Below are positions 1 to 46,046 of a stretch of DNA of 46,046 nt, piece by piece (positions within the stretch are counted from its first letter, which is position 1; the number at the start of each line of letters is the position of its first letter). This stretch comes from a virus. The translations under genes and the position numbers were made by a program. Below the pieces are notes generated by a model. That model saw nothing but the letters and a program-made list of their open reading frames with translations. It did not search any database and was not told where the DNA came from. The stretch covers positions 1 through 46,046 of IMG/VR virus record IMGVR_UViG_3300028831_000595; one strand, given 5' to 3'.

Positions 1-170
1 GAATCTCGTCGTACACCTCCTGAAGCTCCGCGTCCTCCTTCCGGATGCGCTCCTCAACGAGGTCGATGCTCACCATCACGTCCTCGTTGGCGTTGGCGAT
101 GGTGCCCTCGGGGTAGTCGAGCAGCGCGCCAAGCTCACCCCAGAAGGGCGGCGTGATGACCTCCACGCCC
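1..170. repeat. Left copy of imperfect terminal direct repeat
   Basis: These 170 bases recur at the right end (45877-46046) in the same orientation and without gaps. The first 106 bases are identical; the remaining 64 carry about a dozen substitutions, clustered around 107-116. Joining the copies makes one uninterrupted minus-strand gene. I infer a circular or circularly permuted genome whose assembly closed on two sequence variants. Confidence 0.9.
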
Positions 171-310: not shown

Positions 311-534
311 AGCCCCTGCCCTCCCGGCTCCGGCGGCTCTTCGCCCAGCGCGCCCCGGACGTAGCCGGTGACGAAATGCCGCTCGTTCTCGGTGAGCCCG
401 AACTCGCTGATCGACGCCCCGGCGAGGATGAGGTCGCCGATGTCGGCCAGCCGCTCCACGTCCTCGGACAGCCCCAGCATCTCGTCGTCGGGCGGCATCC
501 GGCAGCCGTCCTCGCGGGCGCGGTCGCCGGTCAC
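307..534 (-). CDS. Hypothetical protein, 75 aa, GDRARE N-terminus
   Basis: The GTG start at 534 overlaps the stop of the RyR-domain gene (GTGA), and the stop at 307 overlaps the next GTG in the same way, so the gene sits inside a coupled operon. The product is acidic and has no Cys pairs, signal peptide or membrane segment. Its start, [10 protein letters not shown], matches the starts of the genes at 310 and 45843 both in protein and in DNA. No family is recognised. The ATG further inside (MPPDDEML) is a possible alternative start, but the operon overlap favours GTG. Confidence 0.65.
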
Positions 535-902
535 GGGCGCTCCCCGATCCACCGGCGCGCGATCTCGCAGAGGGCGATGAACACCTCGTCCTTGTCCTGC
601 TCACGCGGTTCGAGGTCACCGAACGGCACCATGTCCGGGTGCGTCTTCGCCACGGGGTCACGCTTCGGCCCGTACGCCCAGCCCATCCGCTCGTAGGCGC
701 GCACCCAGTCGTCGTGAAGCTCCTCGGGCGACGACTTGCGGTCCGGGCCGCACATCATCTCGATGACGTCGAGGAACTGCGCGCGGAAGGCTTCGTCGCG
801 CTCTGCCCACGGCTCGGGCACCACCGGGGCATCGACCGCCATCGCCTGTAGCCGCGCGCCCTCGTAGACGAACTCAGCTCGGCGCTCGTTCAGATCGCTC
901 AC
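531..902 (-). CDS. RyR-domain protein
   Basis: The 123-aa product begins at GTG 902, overlapping the preceding stop. Its C-terminal half (about residues 55-118) fits the RyR repeat: [20 protein letters not shown], then [12 protein letters not shown], then a Glu/Asp stretch and a final helix. The WxYGxxRDxxxKTHPxxVPF pattern is typical of single RyR domains found in many phages and bacteria. Their biochemical role is unsettled; some have been proposed to bind nucleotide-like ligands in antiviral settings. The N-terminal half is not recognised. It lies in the small-gene chain that precedes TerL on the circle. Confidence 0.8.
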
Positions 903-5095: not shown

Positions 5096-5134
5096 GTGCA
5101 CTTCCGCCAGGACTACGACAGGCACGCGGACTGA
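5096..5134 (+). CDS. Twelve-codon leader peptide before the recombinase
   Basis: GTG 5096 stands ten bases after the leader's AAAGG and opens VHFRQDYDRHAD. Its stop TGA (5132-5134) overlaps the recombinase ATG as TGATG. The recombinase itself has no ribosome site of its own, so it is probably translated by reinitiation after this peptide. The evidence is geometric only. Confidence 0.5.
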   Translation: MHFRQDYDRHAD

Positions 5135-5781
5135 TGCGCGCGATCGCCTACCTGCGCGCGAGCACGAAGGAACAGGAGGATTCCGGCCTCGGACTGGACG
5201 CGCAGCGCGCCAAGGTGACCGAGGCCTGCCAGCAGCGCGCGTGGGAGCTGGTCGACGTCGCAACCGACGTCGCATCGGGCAAGAGCACCAACGGGCGCCC
5301 ATCATTCACGCGGGTGCTCGAGCGGCTCGACGCCGGCGAGGCGGACGTGCTCGTGGTCAGCAAGCTGGACCGGCTCAGCCGCTCCATGCTCGACTTCGCC
5401 ACGCTCGTGGAGCGCGCCCGCTCCAACCATTGGACCATCGTTGCGCTCGACCTGGGCGTTGACACCTCGACGCCCTCGGGAGAGATGCTGGCGGGGGTCA
5501 TCGCGCTCTTCGCCCAGTACGAGCGCCGGCTGATCGGCGAGCGCACCAAGGACGCGCTGGCCCAGGCTCAGGCGCGCGGCATCCGCGTGGGCAGACCCGG
5601 CGGCGGCGTCACGAGCCCGATCCCCAAGGAGGTGCGCGAGCGGATGCTCGCGATGCGCTACTCCGACCGCCTTTCCTTCGCTGAGATCGCCCGCCAGCTC
5701 GACGCGGCCGGCATCCCGACGGTTTCCGGCTCGCGCTGGAAGCCCGAGGTCGTGCGGAGGATCTGCCTGCGCGAGGGCTGA
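5134..5781 (+). CDS. Small serine recombinase (resolvase/invertase type)
   Basis: The 215-aa product has the N-terminal resolvase domain: YLRAS at residues 6-10 with the nucleophile Ser10, the SKLDRLSR loop (76-83) carrying catalytic Arg residues, and the long helix ending in YERRLIGERTKDAL. A C-terminal helix-turn-helix follows (FAEIARQLDAAGIPTVSG and after). It lacks the zinc-ribbon and coiled-coil extensions of large serine integrases. DNA inversion, resolution or a simple integration role are therefore all possible. No candidate att or hix sites are seen. Its ATG overlaps the leader-peptide stop. Confidence 0.9.
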   Translation: MRAIAYLRASTKEQEDSGLGLDAQRAKVTEACQQRAWELVDVATDVASGKSTNGRPSFTRVLERLDAGEADVLVVSKLDRLSRSMLDFATLVERARSNHWTIVALDLGVDTSTPSGEMLAGVIALFAQYERRLIGERTKDALAQAQARGIRVGRPGGGVTSPIPKEVRERMLAMRYSDRLSFAEIARQLDAAGIPTVSGSRWKPEVVRRICLREG

Positions 5782-5930: not shown

Positions 5931-6140
5931 GTGCTCATCAGAATGAACGGACCCAAGGTGCGAAGCCGACGCGAGGCGCTCGGCCTCTCGCGCGAGCAGC
6001 TGGCCGCCGAAACCGGGCTCGGCCGCGTGACGCTCTGGAAGATCGAGAGCGAGTCCCACGAGCACGGCTGCCAGCAGTGGATCGCCAAGGCCCTGGCCGA
6101 GGCGCTGGGCTCGCGGCTCGAGGATCTCGTCCGGCCCTGA
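5931..6140 (+). CDS. XRE-family helix-turn-helix regulator
   Basis: The 69-aa product is a single Cro/CI-type HTH domain: VRSRREALGLSREQLAAETG, then a recognition-helix region LGRVTLWKIES, and the closing helix pair ending LGSRLEDLVRP. It has no dimerisation or cleavage domain, so it resembles Cro or a small repressor rather than full-length CI. GTG 5931 is chosen from the leaderless promoter; ATG 5943 is possible. Next to the recombinase it suggests, but does not prove, a temperate or inversion-controlled lifestyle. Confidence 0.85.
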   Translation: MLIRMNGPKVRSRREALGLSREQLAAETGLGRVTLWKIESESHEHGCQQWIAKALAEALGSRLEDLVRP

Positions 6141-10219: not shown

Positions 10220-10334
10220 AATCGTCTTGACGTAGGAGGCAGGTAGGGCAAGGATGCCCTACCGCCCCAGACCCCGGCGCCCAGCGGAACAGCAGCACCC
10301 CGAGACTCCCCAAGCCAAGGAGGCGGACTCCCCC

Positions 10335-10754
10335 ATGTCCTCCGACCTCATGCCGCCTGCGCGGCTCGAGCAGGCGCGCTCGGCGCTTGCATCCGGCAAC
10401 CGCGTCCGCTCGCTGCGCGCGGAACTGTGGAAGGACTGGAAGAAGGCCGGTCGCAGCGCCGCCGCGCTCGACGCGGCCGAGATGATCGTCGACCAGCCCG
10501 CCTACCTCGGCACGCTGGCGGTCGAGGAGTTCGTCGGCCGCGTGCCCACCATCGGCCGCGTGCGCGAGGCCCGCGCCGCCCGGCACCGGCAGGGCAACCG
10601 GCTCGTCAAGATCCTGCACACCGAGGGCATTCGCCTCGGTACGCCGATCCGCGAGCTCACCCACCGCCAGCGTCACCAGCTCGCGGCGTTCCTGCTGCTC
10701 TACGCCGACCCGAAGGCGTGGTCGGCGCACCTGCTCGAGCAGCGCAAGCGGTGA
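10335..10754 (+). CDS. mIHF-like H2TH DNA-binding protein
   Basis: ATG 10335 is chosen because AAGGAGG lies eleven bases upstream; an in-frame ATG at 10254 would add a 27-residue Pro-rich arm. The 139-aa product matches the layout of actinobacterial integration host factor: a long basic N-terminal helix (RVRSLRAELWKDWKKAGRSA), then the helix-two-turn-helix core (LAVEEFVGRVPTIGRVREAR), and a C-terminal helix around LTHRQRHQLAAFLL. In hosts mIHF bends DNA and helps phage integration and replication. A phage-coded copy could serve replication, packaging or recombinase synapsis. Identity is by pattern only. Confidence 0.7.
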   Translation: MSSDLMPPARLEQARSALASGNRVRSLRAELWKDWKKAGRSAAALDAAEMIVDQPAYLGTLAVEEFVGRVPTIGRVREARAARHRQGNRLVKILHTEGIRLGTPIRELTHRQRHQLAAFLLLYADPKAWSAHLLEQRKR

Positions 10755-10759
10755 TGGGT

Positions 10760-11062
10760 TCAGCGCCAGCGGCACACCGGCCAGGGCTGGGCGCCGCGCA
10801 GGCGGTAGAGGATGCGGGCGCGCTTCCACTGCTCCCTGACCGAGGCGCGGGCGGGATCGCCGTGGCCGCCGACGCCGCGCCAGGTGGTGTAGTCGAACTG
10901 GAACAGCCCCCGATAGGTTCCGCCCGGCGAGACGGCATCGGCTCTGTTCCGCGACTCGCACCACGCGATACGCTTGAGGTGCGAATCCATAGACCCGGCG
11001 GCGCCCGCGGGCGTGGCGAGGGCCAAGGTGCAGCAGGTAGCGACGACCAGAGGTCGCAGCAT
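10760..11062 (-). CDS. Secreted Rpf/transglycosylase-like muralytic protein
   Basis: The 100-aa product starts at ATG 11062 after AAGGAGAG. It has a Sec signal (MLRPLVVATCCTLALATPAGA, cleavage near residue 21-23) and then the small Rpf-type fold: IAWCESRNRADAVSPGG, YRGLFQFDYTTWRGVGG, an REQWKRARILYR helix and a terminal WPVC. Glu in WCES is the expected catalytic residue, and the two Cys would pair as in resuscitation-promoting factors. It is the only minus-strand gene inside the rightward replication block and is isolated from the lysis genes. It might cut peptidoglycan during infection, or act on cells other than the one being lysed. Confidence 0.82.
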   Translation of the reverse strand: MLRPLVVATCCTLALATPAGAAGSMDSHLKRIAWCESRNRADAVSPGGTYRGLFQFDYTTWRGVGGHGDPARASVREQWKRARILYRLRGAQPWPVCRWR

Positions 11063-11099
11063 CGGGCTCTCCTTCGTTGGGCAACGGGCGGAGAGCCCG
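11063..11099 (-). promoter_or_regulatory. Hairpin that buries the ribosome site of the Rpf-like gene
   Basis: On the minus strand CGGGCTCTCC (11099-11090) pairs perfectly with GGAGAGCCCG (11072-11063). The 3' arm contains the GGAG of the Shine-Dalgarno sequence and ends directly before ATG 11062. In the folded RNA the ribosome site is fully paired, so translation would need melting or a trans factor. The same DNA would also form a hairpin in rightward transcripts. Confidence 0.7.
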
Positions 11100-11130
11100 A
11101 CCCTCCCAGAGACCGCGCGAGGAGGCAACC

Positions 11131-17490: not shown

Positions 17491-18157
17491 CGGGAATGGC
17501 GACCGCCCGCGCCGGCGCAAGCGGCGCAAGCGCGTGCCCGAGGGCGCCCTGCCGGTGCGCCAGGCCAAGCAGATCGCCGCCATCGTGGAGCGCGCCGAGA
17601 ACCGACAGCGCGCCGACGCGGTGGGTATGCGCCTGAACGGCAAGACCTACCACGAGATCGCCGAGGTGCTCGGCATCGACGTCAACACCGCCTCGCGCTG
17701 GGTGAACGGCGCACTGCGCCAGACGGTCGAGATCGACGCCGACAAGCTCGAGGAGCAGCGCCAGTTGGAGATCGACCGGCTGGAGCGGCTGTGGAGCGTC
17801 TGGTTCCCGCGGGCGACCCGGGATGCCGACGATCAGCAGCCGAACATGGCCGCCGCCAATCTGTGCCTGAAGATCGCCAAGCGCCGCGCCGAGCTCGTCG
17901 GGCTGGACCGCGAGCAGAAGGTCGCCACCAACGTGTCCATCAACGTCAGCGCCGAACAGCTCCGACAGGTGGTCGAGGCCGCGCAGGATCCCGAGGCGGC
18001 GGCGGCGCTGGAACTGACGGCCGCGCTCTTCGCCCACGGCGAGGAGGCGCTGGAAGCGGAGTGGTCTGAGCTAGACGCGGGAGCCGGCGACGGCGGCGCA
18101 GAGGCAGAAGATCAGGGCGATCCAGAGGACCGCCCCGACCATCACATCACCGGGTAG
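17480..18157 (+). CDS. Helix-turn-helix protein, candidate small terminase
   Basis: The 225-aa product has a very basic start (RPRRRKRRKR), a helix-turn-helix (LNGKTYHEIAEVLGIDVNTA, about 53-72), a coiled-coil-like middle (LEEQRQLEIDRLERLW) and an acidic C-terminus. This plan fits small terminase subunits, which bind packaging sites and oligomerise. It is last on the rightward arm, overlaps the helicase gene by 11 bp and converges with the endolysin gene (16-bp overlap). It lies far from TerL on this map; a transcription regulator is an alternative. Confidence 0.5.
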   Translation: MTSNGNGDRPRRRKRRKRVPEGALPVRQAKQIAAIVERAENRQRADAVGMRLNGKTYHEIAEVLGIDVNTASRWVNGALRQTVEIDADKLEEQRQLEIDRLERLWSVWFPRATRDADDQQPNMAAANLCLKIAKRRAELVGLDREQKVATNVSINVSAEQLRQVVEAAQDPEAAAALELTAALFAHGEEALEAEWSELDAGAGDGGAEAEDQGDPEDRPDHHITG

Positions 18158-18861
18158 TGCCTCGAACCCACGTAGTCCGAGCGGTAGCGCAGCGGGTACT
18201 TGGAGATCGGGGTGTGGCCGTCGGAGATGACCCAGCCCGGTTCCACGACGAGGGCCACATGCGACGGGATCCCGGGCGTTCCCGGCATCGACCCGAAGAA
18301 GGCCAGGTCGGTCGGCCCGGGGTTTGCCAGCGCGGTTCCATGTGAAACCAGGGTGCCGGTGTAGCCGAGACCATCGTAGCCGCGGCCGTTGGGGTCGATG
18401 GCGCCGCCGGCCTTGTAGCAGAGCGTGACGAAGGTCGAGCAGTCGATGTGGTCGCGCGCGTCCGAGGCCTCGAAGCTCGCCGGCATCGGACGGAACTGGC
18501 CGTAGACGTAGCGGCCGTTGTTGGCGAGCGCCCAGTAGGCCTTGGCGACGATCGCCCGGCGGATCGTCGTCTCCCTGTCCTCCTTCTCCTGAGCGGCCTC
18601 GAGCCCCCTGGCCTGCTGGAGCAGGCGCTTCTGCTGGGCGCCCAGGTACTTGTCCAGGTGCGACCACACGAGCGCCCCCGCGACGTGGCCGTCGGTGTCC
18701 TTGGACCACTTGGCCTTGAAGGCGGTCACGTCCCTGACCGTGAGGCTGCCGTAGGCGCCCGAGGCGGTGTTCCTGGCGTGCGGGGCGAGCGCCTTGCGAA
18801 GGGCCTGCTGGAGCGCCAGCACGTCCGGGCCCTTGTCGCCCGCCATGAGGGTGCGGGGCAT
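18142..18861 (-). CDS. Endolysin: peptidoglycan-binding plus NlpC/P60 domain
   Basis: ATG 18861 is chosen because GAGGGGG lies nine bases upstream and the ATG overlaps the preceding microgene stop. The 239-aa product has an N-terminal PG_binding_1-type repeat (GPDVLALQQALRKALAP, YGSLTVRDVTAFKAKWSKD), a charged helix, and a C-terminal NlpC/P60 amidase/endopeptidase domain. Catalytic Cys lies in DHIDCSTFVTLCYKAGG and His in GIPSHVALVVEPGWV. It would cut stem peptides to lyse the cell once the holin opens the membrane. It has no signal peptide. Confidence 0.9.
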   Translation of the reverse strand: MPRTLMAGDKGPDVLALQQALRKALAPHARNTASGAYGSLTVRDVTAFKAKWSKDTDGHVAGALVWSHLDKYLGAQQKRLLQQARGLEAAQEKEDRETTIRRAIVAKAYWALANNGRYVYGQFRPMPASFEASDARDHIDCSTFVTLCYKAGGAIDPNGRGYDGLGYTGTLVSHGTALANPGPTDLAFFGSMPGTPGIPSHVALVVEPGWVISDGHTPISKYPLRYRSDYVGSRHYPVM

Positions 18862-18974
18862 CAGAGCCACCCCCTCTTGCGTCGCTCCCTCCACACCGCC
18901 CAAGACACGTAGACGTAGCCGTCATCTTCGCGTCCGTCCAGCCAGATCCTACGGAAGCTCAGGATCCAGGGCAT
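18861..18974 (-). CDS. 37-aa microgene between holin and endolysin
   Basis: ATG 18974 overlaps the holin stop (TGATG) and its own stop overlaps the endolysin ATG (TGATG). The product is Trp- and Arg-rich (MPWILSFRRIWLDGREDDGY at its start, RERRKRGWL at its end) and strongly basic at the C-terminus, with no long hydrophobic run. Exact coupling at both ends makes it a credible gene. It could tune lysis or just relay ribosomes from holin to endolysin. Function unknown. Confidence 0.6.
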   Translation of the reverse strand: MPWILSFRRIWLDGREDDGYVYVSWAVWRERRKRGWL

Positions 18975-19309
18975 CAGACACCCGGCGTCGGAGGCGCCGC
19001 GTCTGGGGTCTGGCCGACGTCGGGAACGACCGGCGAGGCGGGGTCGTCCCTGGGCGCCGCGATGTCGATGCCGAGGTCGCCGAGCGCCGCCTGAGCGACG
19101 GTGATGGCGGTGGCGGCCTGGTGGCTTCGGCCGGCAAACCAGACCGCGATGGCACCGAGCGCAGCCACGCCGAGGCTGGCGGTGGTGGGGCTTATGCCGT
19201 GCTGGACCCAGGCGATGATGAACGCCGCCACGGCGCCCGCCACGCCGCTCAGGGTGACGTAACTTCCCAAACCTAACGGCAGGGGTGGATGGAGCGGAGT
19301 CTTTTGCAC
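18974..19309 (-). CDS. Holin, two membrane segments
   Basis: GTG 19309 follows AGGAGGG. The 111-aa product has two hydrophobic segments: about residues 16-38 (YVTLSGVAGAVAAFIIAWVQ) and 43-60 (ASLGVAALGAIAVWFAG). They are joined by a short polar loop, with an Asp/Pro-rich tail outside. Size, topology and its place just before the endolysin fit a class II holin. Sequence alone cannot show pore formation. Confidence 0.78.
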   Translation of the reverse strand: MQKTPLHPPLPLGLGSYVTLSGVAGAVAAFIIAWVQHGISPTTASLGVAALGAIAVWFAGRSHQAATAITVAQAALGDLGIDIAAPRDDPASPVVPDVGQTPDAAPPTPGV

Positions 19310-20722: not shown

Positions 20723-22042
20723 TTATCCCGGTCGCCGGATTCTCCAGAAGGTGCGCCCGGCGACGCTGGTGGTGTGAACGCTGGCGCCGGTGTGCGGCGA
20801 CTCCACGGCCATGCCGTTGCCCAGGTACAACATGACGTGGCCCGGCTCCGGGAAGAGCAGGTCGCCGGGCTCGGCGTTTCCGAGGTTCGGCACAGGAGTT
20901 CCGACGTTGGCCTGTTCCTCGCTCGTGCGCGGCAGCAGCACGCCGGCCTTCGCCCACGCGAAGCGGACCAGCGCCGAGCAGTCAAAGCCCTTGATGTTGG
21001 CGCCCTGGGCGATGCCCGTGGTCGGGCCCTGGAGGTTGCCGCCGCCCCACGAGTAGGGGATGCCGAGCTCTGAGAGCGCGGCCTGGGTGGCGATACCCGC
21101 GCCACCCGAGGCCGGCGGCGCCTGCGAGGGCGCATTCCCCGCTGCGACCTCGCCGGTCGGCGCCATGATCGCCTTCATGATCGGGTCGACCATCTGCATG
21201 ACTTCCTGCAAATCGGGCGCCTTGCCCCGAAGCGCATCGTTCGAGATGCGGTTGGCGTAGGAAAGGAGCGCCCCGAAGGCGCCTTGGGTCAGCCCGCCGC
21301 CGCCCGGCATCCCGCCCGTGGCCGTGCTCGAGGCGAGCGTCTGGCCGCCGCCCGCGCCCTGTACCAGCGCCCTGGCCTGGTCGAGCTTCGCCAGCGCGTG
21401 CTGGGTGGGGATCTCGTTCGATGTCCCGCGGCCGACCTGGGAGTAGTACTGCATGAGAGCGTCGCTCGGGCTCATGCCCCTGCCGCCGCCGAGCTTGGCC
21501 CACGCCGGCAGCACCGCCATCGCGTTGGTGTAGGGATCCTGGGCCTGCTGGGGCGTCAGGTGCCCGAGTGCGCCGCCCTGATGGAGCTGGTAGAGGCCGA
21601 AGCTCGTTCCCTGGTCGCCGATCGCGCGCGGGTTGCCGCCCGACTCCTCGAGCGCGATGGCGACCGCGAGGTTCGGGTCGACGCCGGTCTGGTGGGCCGC
21701 GCGCACCACGCCCTGCACCCAGCCGGGTGCGCCCGAGGACGCGGCCGGGGTAGGCTGGGTGAGCGCGGGCAACGCGGCTGGGCGGGTCAGACCTGACGGC
21801 CCGCCCAGCGTTTTCAGGATGCCGCCCAGGCCGACGCCGCCCGGCATCGGCAGGTTGTGGATCGCGCCCATCCCGGGGCCGGGCCCCGGCAACTGCCGGA
21901 GCGGCGCGGGCGCGGGCGTCGAGATCAGCGGGCTCGCGGCGCGGTCGATGGACGCCTGGAAGATGTTGCCCGAAGGCCACGGCGACGGCGGCGATGCGGG
22001 TGCGGCTGGCGCGGGTGCGGGTGCGATGCTGGTCAGCGGCAT
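20723..22042 (-). CDS. Tail-associated lysin: transglycosylase plus NlpC/P60 domains
   Basis: ATG 22042 follows GGAGG. The 439-aa product has a Pro/Ala-rich linker, a lysozyme/SLT-like domain (GVDPNLAVAIALEESGGNPR with catalytic Glu, then SFGLYQLHQGGALGHL), a second linker, and a C-terminal NlpC/P60 domain with Cys in IKGFDCSALVRFAWAKAG and His in EPGHVMLYLG. Two cell-wall activities in one virion-type protein suit an enzyme that opens peptidoglycan during DNA entry. It sits between the internal virion genes and the lysis genes; no signal peptide. Confidence 0.85.
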   Translation of the reverse strand: MPLTSIAPAPAPAAPASPPSPWPSGNIFQASIDRAASPLISTPAPAPLRQLPGPGPGMGAIHNLPMPGGVGLGGILKTLGGPSGLTRPAALPALTQPTPAASSGAPGWVQGVVRAAHQTGVDPNLAVAIALEESGGNPRAIGDQGTSFGLYQLHQGGALGHLTPQQAQDPYTNAMAVLPAWAKLGGGRGMSPSDALMQYYSQVGRGTSNEIPTQHALAKLDQARALVQGAGGGQTLASSTATGGMPGGGGLTQGAFGALLSYANRISNDALRGKAPDLQEVMQMVDPIMKAIMAPTGEVAAGNAPSQAPPASGGAGIATQAALSELGIPYSWGGGNLQGPTTGIAQGANIKGFDCSALVRFAWAKAGVLLPRTSEEQANVGTPVPNLGNAEPGDLLFPEPGHVMLYLGNGMAVESPHTGASVHTTSVAGRTFWRIRRPG

Positions 22043-43488: not shown

Positions 43489-45012
43489 TCAGTACCCCGC
43501 CATCTGGTCGAGAACCTCTCGCGTCGGCTGCGGGACGAGAGTATTCGGTCGGATCTGCGCCGTTCGTCGCGAATGCGCCAGAACGGCGGCGGCAATAGCA
43601 TGTGACAAAACCCTATCGTCGTGTCCACTACGAGCTTCATATCGCCCAGGCGCTAGCTCTGTGAATCTCATACATTCCTCTATCGCCTCTGCATCCCGTA
43701 TCCCAATAGTCCTCTGTTGTAGACTCGTCCGTAACTGATCCACGGCAAACTGCTTCGACTTCGCCGTAGTATTCCAGCCGTATGACTTTCTCATCGGCTG
43801 ACCGGGCGCCGAGAAGCGCTCCTCCATGTAGAGGTTGCCGTAGCCCATGTTGGTCAGGTGGGCAATGACGGCCTGTCCTGTGTTGTTCGACTCGGGAACG
43901 AGCAGCGCACGTCCGTAGAGGGCGCCGGCGCCGGCAAGCTCGCGAGCAAACTGGTGTGGAAGCGGCCGTCCGTGAAAAGCCGCCACCTGTATTCCAGCGT
44001 CAACGTCATATAGCGCGGCGGCGCTGGGGTCGGAGTGCGGGCCACCGCCCGCCGGATCGGCAGCCAAAACGTAACGTCGCCCAGGACGCGGCTCCTCCCA
44101 GACGATCCACTCGCCGCGTTCGGATCGCCGGGCCTTTCTGTCGGTGAACTCATAGCGGTGCCCCTGCGTGACGATGTTCTCGATCTGCCAGTTCAGGTGG
44201 CTCGGGTCGAACACGCCGTGTCCAGTCGAAAGAAAAGCCTCTTCTGGACTCAGCGGGTACTCCTGCGGCCCCAGGTGGCCGAGCGCCTCGCGCTGGGCCA
44301 TCACCCAGGCCTCGGTCCTGCCGGGGCGGTCGAGGGCCGAGACGAAGATCGCGCGCTGGCGGGGGTTCTGCTTGGCGCGCAGCCAGGCGGTGTGCAGGTA
44401 GCCGCCGAAGCCGTTGGCGGTGGAGGCGGTCACCATCTTGCCGTGGCTTGCAAGCGTGGGGCGGATGTCGCCCATGCGCCGGTCGGCGTCGTCCCAGTGG
44501 TCGGCCTCGTCGGCGATGAGCAGGTCGCTCGCGTAGCTGCGCCCGGCGCCGGCGGGCAGGTTTCTGATGTCGCAGGTGATGGCGTCCTCAAGCACAGCCG
44601 CGGGCTCTGGCAACTCCGGGTGCGTGAGCCGGAACTCCTCCAGATTCTTGTGATAGATGGAGTGCTGTCGTTTCACCGCTGCCGGAAGTGATGCGTACAT
44701 CTGCCTGACGCGCGCGCTCGCCTCCTGGGCCTCGCGGTCACCCTTGCTCACGATCAGACTGTGGCTGGCCGCCACGCGGATCGCATGGCTCAATGCATAG
44801 AGCGCCACGATCTGGGTGACGCCGGTCTGCCTCGCCTTCAGGATCACGAGCTCGTCGACCTCGGGATCGGCGATGGCCTTCAGGATCTCGCGCTGCTTGG
44901 GCCACAACCGCAGCGGCGTGATGCCACCCGGGATGCGGACCTTGCACATTGATGCAAGAACCTCCGGTGAGACTCTTGCAAGAACCTCAGGCGGGAAGCT
45001 CGCCGTCGTCAC
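43489..45012 (-). CDS. terL: Large terminase subunit (TerL)
   Basis: The 507-aa product has a variant Walker A KARQTGVT (59-66), Walker B LLIADEAD (164-171), a motif III region KMVTASTANGFGG, and the RNaseH-like nuclease. The nuclease shows Asp in YVLAADPAGGG, Glu in LLVPESNNTG and Asp in RSGHDDRVLSH. It would translocate DNA into the prohead and cut concatemers. GTG 45012 overlaps the upstream gene. The 3' half (about 43489-44270) is clearly less GC-rich than the 5' half, as if acquired by recombination. Confidence 0.93.
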   Translation of the reverse strand: MTTASFPPEVLARVSPEVLASMCKVRIPGGITPLRLWPKQREILKAIADPEVDELVILKARQTGVTQIVALYALSHAIRVAASHSLIVSKGDREAQEASARVRQMYASLPAAVKRQHSIYHKNLEEFRLTHPELPEPAAVLEDAITCDIRNLPAGAGRSYASDLLIADEADHWDDADRRMGDIRPTLASHGKMVTASTANGFGGYLHTAWLRAKQNPRQRAIFVSALDRPGRTEAWVMAQREALGHLGPQEYPLSPEEAFLSTGHGVFDPSHLNWQIENIVTQGHRYEFTDRKARRSERGEWIVWEEPRPGRRYVLAADPAGGGPHSDPSAAALYDVDAGIQVAAFHGRPLPHQFARELAGAGALYGRALLVPESNNTGQAVIAHLTNMGYGNLYMEERFSAPGQPMRKSYGWNTTAKSKQFAVDQLRTSLQQRTIGIRDAEAIEECMRFTELAPGRYEARSGHDDRVLSHAIAAAVLAHSRRTAQIRPNTLVPQPTREVLDQMAGY

Positions 45013-45843: not shown

Positions 45844-46046
45844 CGCCCTGCGCCTCGCGTTCACGCCGCATCTGGCGAATCTCGTCGTACACCTCCTGAA
45901 GCTCCGCGTCCTCCTTCCGGATGCGCTCCTCAACGAGGTCGATGCTCACCATCACGTCCTCGTTGGCGTTGGCGATGGTGCCGGGAAGCCAGTCGAGCAG
46001 CGCACCAAGCTCACTCCAGAACGGCGGCGTGATGACCTCGACGCCC
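45836..46046 (-). CDS. 3' part of the gene that runs off the left edge
   Basis: The frame enters at the right edge and ends at TGA 45836. On a circular map it completes the gene that starts at 310 (116 aa in all), ending EIRQMRREREAQGDA. Within the overlap it differs from the left copy by several residues (DW-LPG here against DY-PEG there), so the two ends come from different alleles. Confidence 0.7.
   Translation of the reverse strand, partial: GVEVITPPFWSELGALLDWLPGTIANANEDVMVSIDLVEERIRKEDAELQEVYDEIRQMRREREAQGDA
45877..46046. repeat. Right copy of imperfect terminal direct repeat
   Basis: Matches 1-170 without gaps: identical for the first 106 bases, about a dozen substitutions after that. 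Confidence 0.9.

What the first reader, a model, noticed from the sequence alone, without database searches (positions are those of the whole stretch)
10760..11062. Phage-coded secreted Rpf-like muralytic protein placed in the replication block
Seen: Sec signal, WCES catalytic segment, QF-W pattern and terminal WPVC in 100 residues; the only leftward gene between 2.4 and 15.4 kb. Known: resuscitation-promoting factors are actinobacterial secreted transglycosylases that wake dormant cells. Inference: the phage may remodel walls of, or wake, neighbouring dormant cells, or prevent superinfection, independently of lysis.
Basis: partly seen in the sequence, partly recalled or inferred. Interest (0 to 1): 0.68.

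Follow-up and report, generated by a model that had tools for sequence, protein, structure and literature searches.

The report
Phage-coded secreted wall-cutting enzyme, Rpf fold
A virus of soil actinobacteria carries a small exported enzyme that is built like the bacterial proteins that wake dormant cells; it most likely weakens the host's cell wall at a controlled time, and whether it wakes anything is untested.

Summary
Its predicted fold matches RpfC, RpfE and RpfB best (Z 12.4, 12.3, 12.1; best C-type lysozyme 9.1), and the catalytic Glu is present in 213 of 213 aligned relatives. It misses the curated Rpf cut-offs (58.9 of 180, 43.6 of 200 bits) and lies in a sister clade apart from all three solved Rpfs (99/94). 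So it is Rpf-like, not a demonstrated Rpf; "wakes dormant cells" is unsupported. Two points are new. Against its one close relative (L002) it is the most constrained of eight gene pairs (86% identity against 45-71%; dN/dS 0.18 against 0.50-0.88). An 11-bp hairpin buries its ribosome-binding site and start codon: lowest accessibility of 65 window genes and of 18 L002 genes scored, recalling T4 lysozyme. Best explanation: an exported accessory lysin restrained until late, beside a separate endolysin and tail lysin. Rival: cargo that helps lysogens. Similar proteins occur in many actinophages: a new member of a known kind.

The parts
10760..11062 (-). CDS of the secreted Rpf-like protein, 100 aa, ATG start
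11000..11062 (-). Predicted Sec signal peptide, residues 1-21 (positive n-region, hydrophobic core, A-G-A at the end)
   Evidence: sequence, rule-based score; model poorly ordered there
10772..10990 (-). PF06737 transglycosylase-like (Rpf-type) domain, residues 25-97
10955..10957 (-). Codon of catalytic Glu36 (C-E-S motif)
   Evidence: aligned with the CES/CEA motif of RpfE, RpfC, RpfB; invariant in 213 of 213 rows
10958..10960 (-). Codon of Cys35, half of the conserved Cys pair with Cys97
   Evidence: invariant in 213 of 213 rows
10772..10774 (-). Codon of Cys97, the other half of the pair
   Evidence: Cys in 203 of 213 rows
11062..11100 (-). Leader hairpin: 11-bp perfect arms 11062-11072 and 11090-11100, inner CGUU/AACG stem; covers the GGAG ribosome-binding site and the first base of the ATG
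   Evidence: kept in L002
10254..10754 (+). Neighbour transcribed towards the gene; resembles actinobacterial integration host factor (mIHF) to my eye
   Evidence: no Pfam match itself; its L002 homologue matches PF22525 below cut-off, 19.6 of 27 bits
11131..11382 (+). Divergent 83-aa neighbour, no family match
18142..18861 (-). Separate endolysin-like gene of the late block
   Evidence: phrog_1493 endolysin E 3.3e-6; no Pfam match
18974..19309 (-). Holin-like gene (named by eye only), conserved in L002
   Evidence: 51% identity to L002:5137-5436; no family match
20723..22042 (-). Tail lysin with SLT and NlpC/P60 domains

Best explanation
The gene makes a minimal, exported peptidoglycan glycosidase that acts as an accessory lysin. 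Shown by computation: Rpf-type lysozyme fold, invariant catalytic Glu, (nearly) invariant Cys pair, signal-like N-terminus, strong constraint, and a stable predicted hairpin over the ribosome-binding site kept in both known members. Inferred: long leftward transcripts that read through from the late block carry the hairpin and are not translated; a shorter transcript that starts inside the hairpin, or melting of the hairpin, allows translation late in infection; the host Sec machinery exports the protein and signal peptidase trims it; about 79 residues of bare enzyme then cut glycan strands in the wall, so that holin and endolysin finish lysis of a thick actinobacterial wall quickly. The hairpin would keep a wall-cutting enzyme from being made too early, as for T4 lysozyme. 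I expect the same protein to be free in the debris after lysis, where it could act on neighbours, but nothing here tests that.
For: Fold and family. Glu in 213 of 213 rows. Most constrained of eight pairs (dN/dS 0.18 against 0.50-0.88) with a dS (0.53) like that of Sak4 (0.48), so not simply a recent exchange. Leader: perfect 11-bp arms, -33.7 kcal/mol, z -3.5, and for L002 -27.7, z -2.5; accessibility 0.17, lowest of 65 window genes (next 0.32), and 0.23, lowest of the 18 L002 genes scored. The conserved block is the hairpin plus about ten bases, and it stays with this gene although its divergent neighbour differs between the two phages. Precedents: the exported transglycosylase Tgl of Kayvirus acts as an additional endolysin (PMC7150955, abstract and passages); the T4 lysozyme start is sequestered in long early transcripts (PMC3014915, passages). 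In Streptomyces phages Alone3 and BRock a related gene lies just upstream of the annotated endolysin, with two genes between.
Against: No activity, export or timing was measured. In the window the gene lies about 7 kb from the lysis genes, not beside them as tgl does. No promoter-like or terminator-like site was found nearby. Hairpin evidence rests on two related sequences with little covariation; 5 of 213 SD-like sites in the window are as inaccessible. The other phage homologues do not show it to this degree: of the other 39 loci scored the lowest accessibility is 0.29. The endolysin and holin assignments are weak.
Confidence: 0.45

Rival explanations
1. Lysogen cargo (moron): expressed from its own promoter in a prophage, exported, it adds to the host's own Rpf-like set and helps the lysogen grow, divide or leave dormancy.
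For: Lone opposite-strand gene in the early block in 2 of 2 phages; a Xre-type repressor-like gene (5931-6140) and a short serine recombinase (5134-5781) are present; a chromosome of the order of a Solirubrobacteraceae MAG holds a distant prophage-like module whose terminase, portal and capsid genes are in the same order and strand; that genome has three PF06737 genes of its own.
Against: The recombinase is short, with only part of the Recombinase domain; no resolvase was found in five related viral records; the distant prophage-like module lacks the gene; a buried ribosome-binding site is odd for constant expression; no promoter found.
Confidence: 0.25
2. Paracrine waking factor: released protein wakes dormant neighbours so that progeny find growing hosts.
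For: Rpf fold and export signal; host rpf genes rise during Rhodococcus phage WC1 infection and the authors suggest phage may prevent dormancy (PMC10986025, passages); a conference note reports lower phage infection in Rpf-deficient mycobacteria (PMC12908700, passage).
Against: Misses curated Rpf cut-offs; sister clade apart from the solved Rpfs; no LysM or other wall-binding part, unlike L009, L023, L036, L128 (where L036's LysM match is just under its cut-off).
Confidence: 0.13
3. Superinfection control: exported enzyme alters the wall so that later phages cannot inject.
For: Export signal and position among early genes only.
Against: No direct evidence of any kind; a wall hydrolase motif in a virion aids rather than blocks entry (PMC1796659, passages).
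Confidence: 0.05
4. About the leader only: the inverted repeat is a DNA operator for a dimeric regulator of two divergent promoters rather than an RNA switch.
For: It lies between divergent genes in both phages.
Against: The divergent neighbour differs between the phages while the repeat stays with this gene; the right arm contains the ribosome-binding site; the repeat occurs once in the genome.
Confidence: 0.12

Closest known systems
Mycobacterial resuscitation-promoting factors RpfC, RpfE, RpfB (PDB 4ow1, 4cge, 4emn)
   Same: PF06737 fold, Z 12.1-12.4 at about 2.0 A; catalytic Glu, Cys pair
   Different: Different sub-clade; 'SPGGTYRGLFQF' in place of 'NTGNGYYGGLQF'; no Trp after CESGGN; 31-41% identity; phage gene
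Kayvirus Tgl (PMC7150955; abstract and passages seen)
   Same: Phage-coded, signal peptide, transglycosylase, acts beside a separate endolysin
   Different: Described by its authors as similar to SceD/IsaA; tgl lies a few genes from the endolysin gene lysK; tested in the laboratory
Annotated 'resuscitation-promoting factor' gp102 of Mycobacterium phage prophi79-1 and similar 98-106-aa proteins (L014, L016, L017, L020)
   Same: Stand-alone exported PF06737 protein in actinophages
   Different: L014, L016, L017 and L020 fall in the other, classical Rpf clade; gp102 lies beside the terminase gene; start regions more accessible
Signal-less PF06737 proteins of low-GC phage contigs (L129-L201)
   Same: Same sub-clade, about 102 aa, GKYRGLFQF type
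   Different: No signal peptide by eye or rule; in L168 the gene lies between a tape-measure-like gene and the terminase gene, probably the endolysin itself
Phage T4 gene e leader (PMC3014915; passages seen)
   Same: Start region of a phage wall-cutting enzyme held in an RNA helix
   Different: Unrelated sequence and enzyme; T4 late promoter mapped, none found here
Tape-measure Rpf motifs and pfam06737 LysA domains of mycobacteriophages (PMC1796659, PMC3314691; passages seen)
   Same: Same domain family in phages
   Different: Inside large virion or endolysin proteins, not exported stand-alone enzymes

Membership tests
PF06737 transglycosylase-like domain | Score over Pfam gathering cut-off | tested here: met
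   61 against 27 bits
Resuscitation-promoting factor (Rpf) proper | Curated NCBIfam equivalog cut-offs | tested here: not met
   Rpf 58.9 of 180 bits; RpfC 43.6 of 200 bits
Resuscitation-promoting factor (Rpf) proper | Groups with characterised Rpfs in a tree of the domain | tested here: not met
   Other side of a 99/94 branch from RpfB, RpfC, RpfE; 74 columns, so rough
Resuscitation-promoting factor (Rpf) proper | Rpf lysozyme-like fold | tested here: met
   Top matches are Rpfs, Z 12.4-12.0 for the first four entries against 9.1 for the best C-type lysozyme
Resuscitation-promoting factor (Rpf) proper | Catalytic Glu and conserved Cys pair | tested here: met
   E36 and C35 in 213 of 213, C97 column Cys in 203 of 213 rows
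Resuscitation-promoting factor (Rpf) proper | Secretion signal | tested here: met
   Own rule only; no SignalP
Resuscitation-promoting factor (Rpf) proper | Muralytic activity and resuscitation of dormant cells | not testable with these tools
   Needs protein and cells
Exported accessory phage lysin (Tgl type) | Phage gene with signal peptide and wall-glycosidase fold | tested here: met
Exported accessory phage lysin (Tgl type) | Gene beside the lysis module | tested here: not met
   About 7 kb away in the window; about 2.6 kb in L002
Exported accessory phage lysin (Tgl type) | Adds to lysis after membrane depolarisation | not testable with these tools
   Needs infection or expression tests
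T4 gene e type translational control | Ribosome-binding site and start held in a helix | tested here: met
   Predicted only
T4 gene e type translational control | Promoter that yields transcripts without the upstream arm | tested here: inconclusive
   No sigma-70-like site found in 1.5 kb; other promoter types not covered
Lysogen cargo (moron) | Own promoter and terminator, temperate phage | tested here: inconclusive
   No such sites found; short recombinase and Xre-type gene only

The most novel reading that the evidence does not exclude
An actinophage carries its own exported Rpf-type enzyme of a previously uncharacterised sub-clade, kept silent by a hairpin over its ribosome-binding site and released late, so that lysing cells shed a wall-cutting signal that wakes dormant relatives as fresh hosts: phage-run resuscitation tied to the lytic clock.
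Probability: 0.1. Interest if true: 0.8.

Novelty: new member of a known kind. Interest (0 to 1): 0.42.

Why it matters
Dormancy may shield soil actinobacteria from phages. A phage-coded exported enzyme of the Rpf fold, with its own leader switch, makes it possible to ask directly whether phages manipulate dormancy or merely thin the wall for lysis. The leader hairpin offers a quick reporter test. The survey also suggests that PF06737 proteins serve actinophages in several ways: exported stand-alone enzymes, LysM fusions, and signal-less proteins in the place of an endolysin.

Tried and rejected
Led nowhere or negative: megablast of window:1-20000 against phages gave only short methyltransferase matches; Rfam found no riboswitch (one sub-threshold hit elsewhere); no promoter or terminator site; start-associated repeats like those of some mycobacteriophages (recalled) were sought, but the motif occurs once; A1 and single-sequence scans of viral contigs found only one close relative, L002/L007; plasmid search gave two distant hits. 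A host was inferred only roughly: capsid relatives in 1 of 232 genomes of the order and 3 of 399 of the class of a Solirubrobacteraceae MAG (the class draw includes the order's hit), 0 of 293 in the order of Kribbella, 0 of 7 in the nearest bacterial carriers; the negative searches had no positive control of their own. CRISPR spacers were not searched.

Considered and rejected: lipoprotein signal (residue before the first Cys is Thr in the window, and the Cys comes too early; rule recalled); recent exchange as the reason for high identity (dS like Sak4); antisense position as a general trait (4 of 35 viral loci with GC at or above 0.5, counting L007); export as a general trait of phage PF06737 proteins (signal-like N-terminus in 40 of 114 viral loci: 35 of 35 at GC 0.5 or more and 5 of 79 below; the rule is permissive and L008 is doubtful). 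An ECF-type promoter reading of the conserved leader block (recalled consensus) was considered and not pursued.

Literature: no paper on exported stand-alone Rpf-like proteins of phages as a subject was seen in searches (open PMC library only; listings read, passages of some papers). The 25 papers listed held no mention of resuscitation-promoting factor.

Full report
Observation. The gene is real and exactly placed. The protein is one PF06737 domain behind a signal-like N-terminus: 61 bits against a cut-off of 27. Sequence search of solved chains gives RpfE, RpfC and RpfB first. An AlphaFold2 model from 44 aligned sequences has mean pLDDT 85.7, with 95-98 over residues 31-90 and low values in the signal part. 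Foldseek ranks only Rpf chains at E <= 0.001 (10 chains); the second aligner gives RpfC 12.4, RpfE 12.3, RpfB 12.1, then C-type lysozymes at 9.1 and below.

What it is not. It misses both curated Rpf cut-offs. A tree of 44 rows splits the domain into two halves (99/94): the three solved Rpfs, mycobacterial proteins and many phage proteins on one side; the window, L002, Solirubrobacteraceae and Kribbella proteins, and signal-less phage proteins on the other (an earlier tree of 44 rows gave a similar split, 100/97). With only 74 columns the finer order is unsure. Resemblance to Rpf is thus one of fold and probable chemistry; membership among the resuscitation factors is not shown.

The phage. 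The window is a whole virus record of 46,046 bases. Its ends overlap by 170 bases at 94%, so it is probably near complete. Late genes run leftward from terminase (43489-44949) through portal and capsid to a tail lysin (20723-22042) and an endolysin-like gene (18142-18861); early genes run rightward, with Sak4, SSB, two methyltransferases, RuvC and helicase. The gene studied is the only convincing leftward gene in the early block. A capsid relative at 38% identity (E 3e-50) lies in one chromosome of the order of a Solirubrobacteraceae MAG, 1 of 232 genomes; 3 of 399 in its class; 0 of 293 in another actinobacterial order. Terminase, portal and capsid are in the same order and strand there. Named phages match the capsid at 30.5% or less. 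This points to hosts in that class, without proving it.

The close relative. L002 (IMGVR_UViG_3300044735_000128) has the gene in the same sense relative to the replication genes, between the helicase-side gene and RuvC, while in the window it lies on the other side of RuvC. Protein identity is 86%; the seven other gene pairs compared give 45-71%, and two more neighbours, SSB and the IHF-like gene, give 33% by BLAST. NG86 dN/dS is 0.18 against 0.50-0.88, and dS is 0.53 against 0.48-0.84. These are rough values for saturated, GC-rich genes, but the contrast is large: the protein is under strong selection.

The leader. Directly upstream lies a hairpin with perfect 11-bp arms whose right arm holds the GGAG site and reaches the ATG. 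It folds at -33.7 kcal/mol, z -3.5, no shuffle of 200 as good; L002 -27.7, z -2.5, 4 of 200 as good. Mean unpaired probability of the last 15 leader bases and the start codon is 0.17, lowest of 65 window genes; 0.23 in L002, lowest of the 18 genes scored. Among 213 SD-like sites of the window 5 are as low, so it is unusual and not unique. The conserved block ends about ten bases beyond the hairpin, and the next gene differs between the two phages; the hairpin therefore belongs to this gene. In phage T4, genes e, soc, 49 and I-TevI have start regions sequestered in RNA helices, and for lysozyme this limits translation from long early transcripts (PMC3014915, passages; PMC2988022, passages). I infer the same logic here; no transcript data exist.

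Relatives in phages. A profile search of viral contigs returned 40 loci, and another 122 matches of which 80 were kept. Stand-alone exported forms of 98-106 aa, LysM or NlpC fusions, and signal-less forms all occur. One Mycobacterium phage record already names such a gene 'resuscitation-promoting factor'. In two Streptomyces phages the gene sits just upstream of the annotated endolysin, with two genes between. So the kind is known in annotation.

Mechanism and odds. I put an exported accessory lysin with restrained translation at 0.45, lysogen cargo at 0.25, paracrine waking at 0.13, superinfection control at 0.05; the operator reading of the hairpin (0.12) concerns only the leader and can go with any of these. 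The lead reading explains the enzyme, the export signal, the strong constraint, the hairpin and the separate lysis genes, and has a tested precedent in Tgl of Kayvirus (PMC7150955, abstract and passages). It does not explain well why the gene sits 7 kb from the lysis genes.

Verdict. Observation confirmed; interpretation partly supported; new member of a known kind, with a leader feature that deserves a test.

Noticed in passing
window 1-170 and 45877-46046: The two ends overlap by 170 bases at 94% identity, so the 'linear' record is probably a nearly complete genome of about 45.9 kb.
   Followed up: partly
L129-L201, for example L168:5938-6246: Many low-GC (about 39%) phage contigs carry a signal-less stand-alone PF06737 protein; in L168 it lies between a tape-measure-like gene and the terminase gene and may be the sole endolysin.
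   Followed up: partly
window 10254-10754 and L002:8882-9247: Phage gene resembling actinobacterial integration host factor (S13-like H2TH, below cut-off in L002).
   Followed up: partly
L202 and L203-L206 (G069:C1 about 3.18-3.20 Mb): Distant prophage-like virion module in a chromosome of the order of a Solirubrobacteraceae MAG, with capsid, portal and terminase in window order, without the Rpf-like gene.
   Followed up: partly
L020, L022, L025, L027 upstream of the rpf-like gene: These homologues have a small GGGTC..GACCC hairpin that ends at the start codon, a possible second case of a structured leader.
   Followed up: no
L003:1410-1850: Low-GC phage contig with ORFs that look like Sak4, exonuclease and SSB (by eye) and a small exported lysozyme-like protein with a KIAWCESRN motif.
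   Followed up: no
window 531-902: Small leftward gene with a RyR domain match over cut-off (33.7 against 27.4 bits).
   Followed up: no
window 5134-5781: Short serine recombinase (215 aa) with only part of the Recombinase domain, followed by a Xre-type gene at 5931-6140.
   Followed up: partly
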